Below are positions 13,021-19,625 of a stretch of DNA of 64,000 nt, in pieces. The stretch's first letter is position 1. Every line of letters begins with the position of its first letter. The notes under the pieces were generated by a model, which was not told where the DNA came from, ran no database searches, and saw only the letters and a list, made by a program, of their open reading frames with translations. The DNA comes from Patescibacteria group bacterium. GTDB taxonomy: Bacteria > Patescibacteriota > Gracilibacteria > UM-FILTER-43-11. The stretch spans positions 62,001-126,000 of the forward strand of contig JAHIUN010000005.1 in NCBI GenBank assembly GCA_018817125.1, read 5' to 3'. A program made the translations under genes and the position numbers.

Positions 13021-13383
13021 TTAAAGTTCTAGTTCTAATCCCTCCAGTCCAATTCTTTTAAGATGTTCCCTAAGCGCTCTGATAATCACAAAACGTTTAA
13101 AAGATGTTGCCACCTCAGCTTCCCGCCTCGCTACATCATCGTATGGCAGGGTATTCATTAGGTTCCGCCTGATCTGTTCACGTGGCAATTGCGTGCTAGT
13201 CAGCGCTTCTTTAATGCCACTGTTTTTCGTGAAATCAAAAATATCCCGCGGATCCATACACATCCCCAGTCCGATTTCATAAATCGTGTTCAGATCTTTT
13301 TCCGGAATACCCACATGGCCCATCTGGCGGATGAATTCTTTCAGAGTAAGATTTCTTTTTTCAGTATTGTTTGGTTGTGCCAT
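13021..13383 (-). CDS. Hypothetical protein (120 residues)
   Basis: Not recognised; helical, begins MAQPNNTEKRNLTLKEF. The open frame extends to an ATG at 13419, but the -10 box of the promoter lies inside that extension, so I chose the ATG at 13383, about 18 bases after the expected transcription start. It is divergent from the TPR/RelA-like gene, with overlapping -35 boxes. Confidence 0.6.
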   Translation of the reverse strand: MAQPNNTEKRNLTLKEFIRQMGHVGIPEKDLNTIYEIGLGMCMDPRDIFDFTKNSGIKEALTSTQLPREQIRRNLMNTLPYDDVARREAEVATSFKRFVIIRALREHLKRIGLEGLELEL

Positions 13384-13407
13384 GGTGCCTTTGGTTAGAA
13401 GGGGTGT

Positions 13408-13436
13408 ATTGTAAAACATAAATTATCTTTTGACAA
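13408..13436 (-). promoter_or_regulatory. Sigma70-type promoter, left-facing
   Basis: Minus-strand TTGTCA, 17 bases, TACAAT. Its -35 box (13431-13436) overlaps the -35 box of the right-facing promoter at 13430-13435. Confidence 0.75.
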
Positions 13437-13458
13437 ATTATTTTATTTTTTGTTTAAT
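13430..13458 (+). promoter_or_regulatory. Sigma70-type promoter, right-facing
   Basis: TTGACA, 17 bases, TTTAAT. It shares five bases of -35 with the divergent promoter, so the two should compete for polymerase. Predicted leader about 14 bases. Confidence 0.75.
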
Positions 13459-13478: not shown

Positions 13479-15620
13479 ATGACCGAGCATGATCTTCCGT
13501 CTAATGAAGAGGCTGAGCGTTATTTTGAACGTGCTAAAATAATGCTCGATTCCCACCTGGTTTCTCGCGAAGAGGCAACGGGAAGCGCTTTGGATAACGC
13601 AAAAAAAGCATTTGAGCTTCAGCCAGAGAATCCTCACTATTTTAATTTGTTTTTGCAGACGTCTCTGGCTACACGCCAGTCTGTTTTTCAATTGAGCTCA
13701 CAAGAGATTCTTGAAAAAGCTTTTCAGGTTCCCAAATGCCAGGAGGCAGTTCTGTTTGTCATTAACCATGTCAGGAATCAGCTTATGGATTTAATGGCAA
13801 GTGATCCTGAATCTTTTAAAAAGGTTTCTTTTGTTCCTGAAATGGAGCTTTTGGAAAAGTTTAAAAATATTCATCCTAAACCGGAAATCCTGCACGCACT
13901 TTATTTTTTATATAAGTTATCCGGCCGTCAGCATGAGGGCATGATATTTTTTAAACAGGCGGCTGAGGCACAGCCGGAAAATTATGGTCATCATTATATT
14001 ATGGCCTGCAAAAATCAGGAACGTTATCAGGAACTAATCGAATATTATGAGAAGAATGAGGTTATTTTACAGCCAGTTATGTCGGAAGTTCATTTAACAG
14101 TTGTGGCAGTGGCTTATGAAAAAAGAGCAGCCGGCTTAGATTGGCAGATTCGCATCCATTTTAAAAATAAGGGTATGCCTGCCACGTCCTTAGAAGATTA
14201 TAGAAAAGCCAGGGCTATTTATGAAAAAATAGCTTCATCCTATCAGCCTATTCTTAGCGGTGGGCAGTCGGTATCGCCGGATGGAGCATTGGCAATTATT
14301 AATCATGCCCAGTCTTTTTTCCAGGAGGCCCAGTGCCTCGCCTTTTTATCGGACGATCAAGAAGACAGGAATGATGAAGTTTTTGAGCTTAAGAAAACGG
14401 CCTTTGATATTTTAAACCGGATTATCGAACGGATGGGTGAGATCGATTACCCGAAATCTTCTGATATGTATGAATATTTATTATTGGCCAAGACCCATCT
14501 CTTATCCGCCTCCGCGAATGCCCGTTTTGGCATTGAGGCCATAGAAAAAGCGATTGGAATAGCCCATGAATTAGCAGATGATGAGCGTTTCCGCGATCTT
14601 GGGTTCGAAAATATTTTATTAGATAATTTGCAGATTTTATTAAGTATCAGAGGCGGTTTATTAAAGGAGGAGCCTGTGGATACGAGTGAGAGAGAACTTC
14701 TTCTTTTGGGTTCATTAATGAAAAATTGGAAACAGCTCGAAGGTTATGCCAAACTCATTCAATTTTACCTGGAGATCGGACAAAACAAGGAAGCTTATCG
14801 TATTGAACAATTCTGCGCCATTGTCCCGTTCCTGGAGGACCTTATTAAACTGGATAAATTTGGACGCCAGGATTTTATCAGCAGTGCTTTGGGTTTGGCA
14901 GAAGTGCCAGATAGCAAAAATGTCACTGATTATAATGCGGCGCTTAAAAAAGTATATGATTCATTAGAAGCTACACAGATCGAATTAACACAACATGTCC
15001 AACCGCTGTATGAAGCTTTGGAACCCTGTCATCAGAGATATAAAGATTATTTAGCAAAGATCGCTCCTGAACATGCCATTATTCAATCCCGTATTAAGAA
15101 TATTTACTCCATTATTCTCAAGCTTTTAAAAGAAGATCATGCCAGCATTCCAGAAGTTACTGATCTTTTGGCTTTTCGCGCTTTGACTGATACCGAAGAA
15201 GAAGTAAGGGAACTTTACGAAAAAGTCCGCCTTGGAATGAGGAAAGATAAGCCCATGAAAGAGTGGATCACTATTGATAAACCTACTAAAACCAATTACC
15301 GGTCTATGGATATTACCGGTTATGTCCAGGGTGATGATGTGCAGCTGCAAGTCCAGATCCGCCCTAAGGCTATTGAGGCGGAAATCAGCGCCGGTTTGGC
15401 GCATCATGGCCATTATAAACGTGAATCCGGCTGGGAGCTGGAAAGGAAAATCAATAAGAATCCCATTAAATACATGACCCTTCTTTATGAAATTATTGGC
15501 AGGTTGTGGCATGCCTATCGTTTTATCCGTGATTCAGAAATACCCCATGCTTTGCATGAGCTTTTGGAGATTTACCAGAATCCACCCTTACCGCATTTAC
15601 CAGATCAGCCAAGTAAATGA
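13479..15620 (+). CDS. TPR protein with C-terminal RelA/SpoT-like nucleotidyltransferase domain
   Basis: 713 residues with no signal peptide. The N-terminal two-thirds is helical with TPR-like units (ALDNAKKAFELQPENP near 42; FFKQAAEAQPENYGHHY near 156). Residues about 536-647 follow the RelA/SpoT synthetase pattern: RIKNIYSIILK, then VTDLLAFRAL with the metal-binding Asp (about 562), DKPTKTNYRSMDI, LQVQIRP (about 623) and AEISAGLAHHGHYK. The position normally occupied by the catalytic Glu in the E-V-Q-I-R motif is Gln, and the usual His after YRS is Asp, so it may be inactive or altered. There is no HD hydrolase, TGS or ACT domain. It could sense or make an alarmone-like nucleotide; this is inference. 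Confidence 0.7.
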   Translation: MTEHDLPSNEEAERYFERAKIMLDSHLVSREEATGSALDNAKKAFELQPENPHYFNLFLQTSLATRQSVFQLSSQEILEKAFQVPKCQEAVLFVINHVRNQLMDLMASDPESFKKVSFVPEMELLEKFKNIHPKPEILHALYFLYKLSGRQHEGMIFFKQAAEAQPENYGHHYIMACKNQERYQELIEYYEKNEVILQPVMSEVHLTVVAVAYEKRAAGLDWQIRIHFKNKGMPATSLEDYRKARAIYEKIASSYQPILSGGQSVSPDGALAIINHAQSFFQEAQCLAFLSDDQEDRNDEVFELKKTAFDILNRIIERMGEIDYPKSSDMYEYLLLAKTHLLSASANARFGIEAIEKAIGIAHELADDERFRDLGFENILLDNLQILLSIRGGLLKEEPVDTSERELLLLGSLMKNWKQLEGYAKLIQFYLEIGQNKEAYRIEQFCAIVPFLEDLIKLDKFGRQDFISSALGLAEVPDSKNVTDYNAALKKVYDSLEATQIELTQHVQPLYEALEPCHQRYKDYLAKIAPEHAIIQSRIKNIYSIILKLLKEDHASIPEVTDLLAFRALTDTEEEVRELYEKVRLGMRKDKPMKEWITIDKPTKTNYRSMDITGYVQGDDVQLQVQIRPKAIEAEISAGLAHHGHYKRESGWELERKINKNPIKYMTLLYEIIGRLWHAYRFIRDSEIPHALHELLEIYQNPPLPHLPDQPSK

Positions 15621-18986: not shown

Positions 18987-19625
18987 ATGGGGCGATATTT
19001 GGAGTTTATAAAAACGTATCGGTTGTTACATCGTAACAGTCAAAAACACATCATTTTTAAAGATGCGTATTATTTTGTGACGATAAAAACACATAATAAT
19101 CTCCTGTTTTTCCGGGAACATATTTTTGGCGATTTATTTGTGGCCATCGGCTCTGAGGTATCAAAAATTGTCACAAAACTTTTGCGTTGTAAATATGGTG
19201 AAGAAGCTCAGGCTCGAAGAGAAAATCTGCAGTTTTGCAAACAGCTAAAAGGCTTTTTGCTGTTTGCATGGGTTATTTGTTATGAGCATGTGCATTTATT
19301 GCTCCAGCCAAATGATAAGTGGAATATTTCTGATGTTATTCATTCTTTAAAACGACATACATCAAGAAATATGAATATTTTGGTTGATAGTATATCTGAA
19401 AGTGCGGATAGCTATCCGCACTTTCAGAGTGAAGTCTCGTATCGTTTCTTGTCAAAATTCAAGTGGCAGAAATCTTTTTACGACCATTATATCCGCAACG
19501 ACCGTGATTTCGATCATCACATGGACACCATCGAACGCAATCCCGTGAAACACGGTTTGCCTCCGGATTGGCCATACATTTACATCAACCCGAAATACGA
19601 GGATTTAACCGATGACTGCATTTAA
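18987..19625 (+). CDS. REP-associated tyrosine transposase (RAYT, Y1/HUH type)
   Basis: A 212-residue single-domain transposase of the IS200-like Y1 family. It shows the HUH pair in YEHVHLLLQP (usually MPNHVHLL), a helix with WQKSFYDHYIRNDRDF carrying candidate catalytic Tyr residues, and the RAYT-type end DTIERNPVKHGLPPDWPYI. Such enzymes nick and move single-stranded hairpin repeats (REPs). Inside the gene itself (19396-19427) lies a perfect 32-base palindrome that matches the palindromes in the nuclease gene. It is 3 bases upstream of dprA and may be co-transcribed with it. Confidence 0.88.
   Translation: MGRYLEFIKTYRLLHRNSQKHIIFKDAYYFVTIKTHNNLLFFREHIFGDLFVAIGSEVSKIVTKLLRCKYGEEAQARRENLQFCKQLKGFLLFAWVICYEHVHLLLQPNDKWNISDVIHSLKRHTSRNMNILVDSISESADSYPHFQSEVSYRFLSKFKWQKSFYDHYIRNDRDFDHHMDTIERNPVKHGLPPDWPYIYINPKYEDLTDDCI
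19396..19427 (+). repeat. In-frame REP-like palindrome (copy e, perfect)
   Basis: CTGAAAGTGCGGATAG is followed immediately by its exact reverse complement. It encodes SESADSYPHFQ in the transposase and matches copies a to d in core and flank. Confidence 0.8.

What the first reader, a model, noticed from the sequence alone, without database searches (positions are those of the whole stretch)
13479..15620. TPR fused to a degenerate RelA/SpoT synthetase domain
The C-terminal domain keeps the RxKxxYS, VTDLLAFRAL (Asp) and QIR motifs, but the catalytic Glu position before VQIR is Gln and the His after YRS is Asp. No hydrolase domain is present. It could be a dead sensor, a differently specific pyrophosphokinase, or related to toxic alarmone synthetases.
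Basis: partly seen in the sequence, partly recalled or inferred. Interest (0 to 1): 0.6.

Follow-up and report, generated by a model that had tools for sequence, protein, structure and literature searches.

The report
Helical-repeat protein with dead alarmone-synthetase domain
A tiny-genome bacterium (Candidatus Peregrinibacteria) carries, beside its normal stress-alarmone enzyme, a helical-repeat protein ending in a conserved but probably inactive copy of the alarmone-making domain, in which the essential glutamate has become the same glutamine that kills the enzyme in the laboratory.

Summary
A 713-codon ORF (13479-15620, +) ends in a RelA/SpoT synthetase (SYNTH) domain, residues 537-649 (PF04607, E=9e-15), after about 480 residues of TPR-like helical repeat. 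There is no hydrolase domain. Catalytic Glu323 (RelSeq numbering) is Gln624 and His312 is Asp611. Acceptor (G-loop) residues Tyr299, Lys304 and Asn306 are also replaced. The published E323Q mutant has no detectable synthetase activity. The Mg-binding Asp, both adenine-stacking Arg and phosphate-binding Lys/Gln are kept. In 353 same-class genomes only four members were found, in three taxonomic families, forming one clade (100/98). Gln occurs in three of four; the fourth keeps Glu but lacks an ATP-stacking Arg. None has a complete active site, whereas all 52 other SYNTH domains compared have Glu and His. The gene is under purifying selection (dN/dS about 0.16), and the altered pocket lies in the best-conserved stretch. 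All four genomes also encode a long Rel. Best reading: a nucleotide-binding pseudo-synthetase on a TPR-like scaffold, a regulator or sensor rather than an alarmone synthetase or toxin. An altered-acceptor pyrophosphokinase is not excluded. Function is inferred. Pseudo-SYNTH domains and SAS-TPR proteins are known separately; this combination was not found in the literature searched.

The parts
13479..15620 (+). Whole gene: TPR-like repeat plus pseudo-SYNTH protein, 713 aa
   Evidence: ORF; 64% identical, syntenic relative in L022/G004; dN/dS 0.16
13479..14918 (+). N-terminal TPR-like helical-repeat region, residues 1 to about 480
   Evidence: All-helical AlphaFold model, moderate confidence over residues 10-210; loose Foldseek matches to TPR superhelices; sub-threshold TPR hits
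15087..15425 (+). Degenerate RelA/SpoT synthetase domain, residues 537-649
   Evidence: PF04607 55.4 bits; SYNTH fold
15090..15098 (+). R538-I-K540 motif (RelSeq R241, K243), ATP-site residues kept
15162..15164 (+). Asp562 (RelSeq D264, Mg ligand), kept in all four members
15291..15293 (+). Thr605 in place of guanine-contacting Asn306
   Evidence: role of Asn306 from PMC9143738
15309..15311 (+). Asp611 in place of His312 (GDP phosphate contact)
   Evidence: PMC9143738
15348..15350 (+). Gln624 in place of catalytic Glu323
   Evidence: E323Q abolishes synthetase activity, PMC13299517
15426..15617 (+). Family-specific C-terminal helical extension (KxxSGxxLxxxINxNPxxYLxxL...), residues 650-713
   Evidence: Partly conserved in all four members; low model confidence here
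13430..13458 (+). Possible promoter TTGACA-17-TTTAAT, about 20 bases before the ATG
   Evidence: Read by eye; not reported by the scanner, so weak

Best explanation
It is a pseudo-synthetase: a SYNTH-fold domain that has lost (p)ppGpp synthesis but kept most of a nucleotide/phosphate pocket, fused to an N-terminal TPR-like scaffold. Shown: the fold homology, the Glu to Gln change and the G-loop changes, the retained Asp, Arg and Lys, the monophyly, the purifying selection, and co-occurrence with a long Rel. Inferred: the pocket binds ATP or an alarmone-type nucleotide without turning it over, and the TPR-like arm presents or withholds a partner accordingly, so that it acts as a nucleotide-dependent regulator or adaptor. 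The partner (possibly Rel itself) is unknown.
For: Gln replaces the catalytic Glu in three of four members, and all four lack His312, Lys304 and Asn306. All 52 other SYNTH domains compared from the same phylum have Glu323, His312 and Lys304, and 51 have Asn306. E323Q abolishes RelSeq synthetase activity (PMC13299517). Distant members miss different further residues: G282 has R241G and keeps Glu; G316 has R269T. Lys243, Lys251, Asp264, Tyr308, Gln325 and Arg327 are kept in all four; Lys243, Lys251 and Gln325 are among the residues that contact pppGpp in RelSeq. The protein is not decaying: dN/dS 0.16 overall and 0.12 at residues 594-652, which are 88% identical to L022 against 64% overall. The family is monophyletic, 100/98. 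An intact long Rel gene exists in the same genome, with hits in 650-760-aa frames in the other three genomes. Precedent: the pseudo-SYNTH of A. baumannii SpoT is a regulatory domain (PMC9974481), and the TPR domain of Treponema Tde-SAS is a brake on synthesis (PMC10434055).
Against: One member (G282) keeps the catalytic Glu. The Mg-binding Asp and the ATP-site Arg/Lys residues are intact in the window protein, more than a purely structural relic needs. No ligand or partner is shown, and there is no conserved operon partner outside the genus. Only four sequences are known.
Confidence: 0.6

Rival explanations
1. Active pyrophosphokinase with a different acceptor: ATP still binds at Arg538/Lys540/Lys548/Asp562/Arg567, the remodelled G-loop (W596, T603, T605, D611) takes a non-guanine acceptor, and Asp611 or another residue replaces Glu as base.
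For: The donor-site residues are complete in the window protein and L022, and the remodelled acceptor loop lies in the most conserved stretch. toxSAS show that the SYNTH fold can switch acceptor to the tRNA CCA end (PMC11559606).
Against: The donor site is itself broken in G282 (R241G) and G316 (R269T), so ATP-driven transfer is not a conserved family property. E323Q alone kills RelSeq.
Confidence: 0.14
2. Purely structural pseudo-domain: the SYNTH fold is only a protein-protein interaction or scaffold module with no ligand.
For: Substitutions are scattered among lineages, and the SYNTH-inactive A. baumannii SpoT no longer binds GDP.
Against: Phosphate-contacting Lys, Gln and Tyr and the Mg-binding Asp are invariant in all four; A. 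baumannii SpoT lost the equivalent Asp, Gln and Tyr.
Confidence: 0.18
3. toxSAS toxin with the divergent small ORF 13021-13419 as antitoxin.
For: A small conserved unknown protein (65% identical) lies divergently just upstream in both genomes of the genus. There is a weak PADLOC hit to the candidate PDC-S33, which covers the generic SYNTH domain.
Against: The catalytic residues are degenerate. The pair is divergent rather than bicistronic, and it is absent next to the G282 and G316 genes. The small ORF has no Pfam or PADLOC match. No relatives were found on viral contigs and none of the family on plasmids.
Confidence: 0.04
4. Decaying pseudogene of a SAS-TPR protein.
For: Several active-site residues are lost.
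Against: Intact 618-713-aa frames in all four genomes, dN/dS 0.16, conserved synteny between the two relatives of the genus, and the altered pocket among the most conserved parts.
Confidence: 0.03

Closest known systems
DsRel / SAS-TPR family (Treponema denticola Tde-SAS, PMC10434055)
   Same: One SYNTH domain joined to TPR repeats, no hydrolase domain
   Different: There SYNTH is N-terminal with four TPRs at the C-terminus (410 aa) and all Syn motifs are intact and active. Here the order is reversed, the repeat region is much longer, and the site is degenerate.
Pseudo-SYNTH domain of hydrolase-only SpoT (Acinetobacter baumannii, PMC9974481)
   Same: A natural SYNTH domain without synthetase activity kept as a regulatory part
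   Different: There it sits in a long RSH with an active hydrolase and has lost the Asp, Gln and Tyr that are kept here. Here there is no hydrolase.
Canonical long Rel (RelSeq 1VJ7; also the window genome's own Rel, L001)
   Same: SYNTH fold, R-x-K, Asp264, Arg269, Tyr308 and Q-x-R motifs
   Different: No HD, TGS or ACT domains; Glu323, His312, Lys304, Asn306 and Tyr299 replaced
toxSAS (FaRel2, CapRel)
   Same: SYNTH domain without hydrolase; CapRel among structural matches
   Different: toxSAS are active pyrophosphokinases in toxin-antitoxin modules; here the catalytic Glu is lost and no conserved antitoxin partner exists

Membership tests
RelA/SpoT synthetase-domain superfamily (PF04607) | Match above the curated Pfam cut-off | tested here: met
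   55.4 bits against 27; the other three members 37-51 bits
RelA/SpoT synthetase-domain superfamily (PF04607) | SYNTH fold | tested here: met
   Domain model, mean pLDDT 70.5 (core about 80-97), matches RelSeq, RelP and RelQ at probability 1.00; the alignment contained synthetases, so this is not fully independent
Functional (p)ppGpp synthetase (SAS or long RSH) | Catalytic Asp264 and Glu323 | tested here: not met
   Asp562 kept, Glu replaced by Gln624; E323Q is inactive in RelSeq
Functional (p)ppGpp synthetase (SAS or long RSH) | G-loop and phosphate contacts Tyr299, Lys304, Asn306, Tyr308, His312 | tested here: not met
   Only Tyr308 kept
Long RSH (Rel/RelA/SpoT) | HD, TGS and ACT domains with SYNTH | tested here: not met
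   Pfam finds only RelA_SpoT
DsRel (SAS-TPR) | N-terminal SYNTH followed by C-terminal TPR | tested here: not met
   Order is reversed
DsRel (SAS-TPR) | Intact Syn1-Syn4 motifs | tested here: not met
DsRel (SAS-TPR) | Position within the DsRel clade of an RSH tree | not tested
   No DsRel sequence was in the tree
toxSAS | Adjacent neutralising antitoxin | tested here: inconclusive
   Only a divergent unknown ORF in one genus; no match in Pfam or PADLOC
toxSAS | Pyrophosphorylation of tRNA or adenosine nucleotides | not testable with these tools
   Needs biochemistry; catalytic Glu absent
TPR proteins | TPR repeats recognised by curated profile | tested here: inconclusive
   Only sub-threshold TPR hits; loose fold matches

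The most novel reading that the evidence does not exclude
A separate RSH lineage of Patescibacteria in which the SYNTH fold has become either a stand-alone nucleotide/alarmone receptor on a TPR-like arm or a pyrophosphokinase for a non-guanine acceptor, working alongside the ordinary Rel.
Probability: 0.3. Interest if true: 0.65.

Novelty: new variant of a known kind. Interest (0 to 1): 0.42.

Why it matters
If right, it is a natural Glu323Gln synthetase domain kept under selection outside any hydrolase, meaning the SYNTH fold can serve as a receptor or scaffold on its own. It would also add an alarmone-linked regulator to the very small gene set of a reduced-genome bacterium. It is directly testable with small proteins and standard binding assays.

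Tried and rejected
Full-length AlphaFold with only two sequences gave a poor C-terminal model (pLDDT under 50), so the domain was refolded with 15 SYNTH sequences from viral contigs. Searching the family profile in viral contigs found nothing, and plasmids gave only an ordinary Rel. A sample of 380 genomes of the phylum gave no further member beyond the window's genus. The toxin-antitoxin idea was checked through neighbours and PADLOC and found weak. The conserved-pocket permutation gave 176 of 5000 shuffles as high, so it is suggestive only. A promoter scan added little.

Full report
The object. The ORF 13479-15620 (+) codes for 713 residues. Residues 537-649 match PF04607 RelA_SpoT at E=9e-15, well over the cut-off, and nothing else passes a curated Pfam threshold. 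TIGR00691 and PRK11092 also match this part, below their whole-protein cut-offs. The first 480 residues are all-helical in the AlphaFold model, fairly confident over about residues 10-210, and resemble TPR superhelices loosely. Sub-threshold TPR hits agree. The window lies in a 1.03-Mb, 17-contig assembly. Its nearest relative's record is titled Candidatus Peregrinibacteria.

Active site. The RelSeq alignment printed by HMMER fixes the numbering: R241=R538, K243=K540, K251=K548, D264=D562, R269=R567, K297=K594, Y299=W596, K304=T603, N306=T605, Y308=Y607, H312=D611, E323=Q624, Q325=Q626, R327=R628. The loop between K297 and Y308 is two residues longer here, so the K304/T603 assignment could shift by one (K604 is next to it). 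In RelSeq, Tyr308, Lys304 and Asn306 hold the guanine, while Lys304, Lys297, Tyr299 and His312 hold the GDP phosphates (PMC9143738). Arg241 and Arg269 sandwich the adenine, and Asp264 and Glu323 are the catalytic acids (PMC7983052). D264G and E323Q each eliminate synthetase activity (PMC13299517). The window protein therefore keeps the ATP donor residues and the metal Asp, and has lost the general base and most of the acceptor loop.

Relatives. A protein search of the 18 genomes of the taxonomic family found one true relative, 64% identical over the full length, also fetched as L022. A profile search of 353 genomes of the class found two more: G282, 708 aa, and G316, 618 aa. A sample of 380 genomes of the phylum gave none beyond the window's genus. 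Viral contigs gave none, and plasmids gave only an ordinary Rel. In a tree of 63 SYNTH domains the four form one group with 100/98 support on long branches. Where the group attaches is not resolved.

Degeneracy is the family trait, not one substitution. Catalytic Glu is Q/Q/E/Q in window, L022, G282 and G316. His312 is D/D/A/D, Asn306 is T/T/S/R, Lys304 is T/T/V/T. G282, which keeps Glu, has R241 replaced by Gly, and G316 has R269 replaced by Thr. The 52 other SYNTH domains from the same phylum all have Glu323, His312, Lys304, Tyr308, Arg269 and Asp264; 51 have Asn306. Lys243, Lys251, Asp264, Tyr308, Ser310, Gln325 and Arg327 are invariant in the four. Lys243, Lys251 and Gln325 are among the residues listed as contacting pppGpp in the new RelSeq structure.

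Selection and setting. Between window and L022, dN/dS is 0.16 for the gene, 0.18 for the PF04607 part and 0.12 for residues 594-652. Neighbouring housekeeping genes are at 0.03-0.07. Several dS values are near saturation, so the ratios are rough. The stretch 594-652, which holds the changed pocket, is 88% identical against 64% overall, but a block permutation reached this in 176 of 5000 trials, so I call it suggestive. Gene order around the ORF is the same in L022: a divergent small unknown ORF and an alpha/beta hydrolase on one side, a convergent MFS gene on the other. It differs in G282 and G316, so no partner gene is conserved across the family. The window genome's own Rel is a full 723-aa protein with HD motif and intact Glu. 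The other three genomes have hits in 650-760-aa Rel-like frames.

Structure. With synthetase sequences added to its alignment, the domain model has mean pLDDT 70.5, with the core near 80-97. Its best PDB matches are RelP, Rel, RelQ, RelSeq and also CapRel and SpoT. The model is informed by those sequences, so it supports but does not independently prove the fold. The sequence homology stands alone.

Interpretation. The simplest reading is a pseudo-synthetase that keeps a phosphate-rich, metal-capable pocket. Loss of catalysis differs in detail among lineages while the binding residues persist, which fits ligand binding without turnover better than pure decay or pure scaffold. The A. baumannii SpoT pseudo-SYNTH shows that a dead SYNTH can be a regulatory domain. 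Tde-SAS shows that TPR repeats can control a SYNTH domain. The role as nucleotide-dependent adaptor or regulator is inference. A different-acceptor pyrophosphokinase is the main active-enzyme rival, because the ATP site in the window protein is complete. It is weakened by donor-site losses in the two distant members. Nothing supports a toxin.

Novelty. I found no description of an N-terminal repeat plus C-terminal pseudo-SYNTH protein in the papers searched; the library is open-access only. It is a new variant of a known kind.

Noticed in passing
window 13021-13419 (-): Unknown 132-aa ORF divergent from the finding, 65% identical in L022 and without Pfam or PADLOC match. The L022 alignment suggests the true start is at 13383.
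   Followed up: partly
L104:2866-3522: A degenerate SYNTH-like domain on an IMG/VR contig: R241 is Gly, the catalytic Glu is Ser (MSVLIRT) and Gln325 is Leu, while YRSLH is kept. Another pseudo-SYNTH, not of the window's family by eye.
   Followed up: no
L022:4240-4731 and L050:3236-4369: SLOG/LDcluster4 proteins lie within a few genes of the TPR-pseudo-SYNTH gene in two genomes. They share only the broad fold family, and none lies at that place in the window, so this may be chance.
   Followed up: partly
window 18987-19625 (+): IS200-like Y1 transposase (PF01797) between purM and dprA homologues, with a shorter relative at the same place in L022.
   Followed up: no
L021:1486-1989: A 167-aa stand-alone SYNTH protein with intact Glu and His in another genome of the same family (G014), an ordinary small alarmone synthetase candidate.
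   Followed up: no
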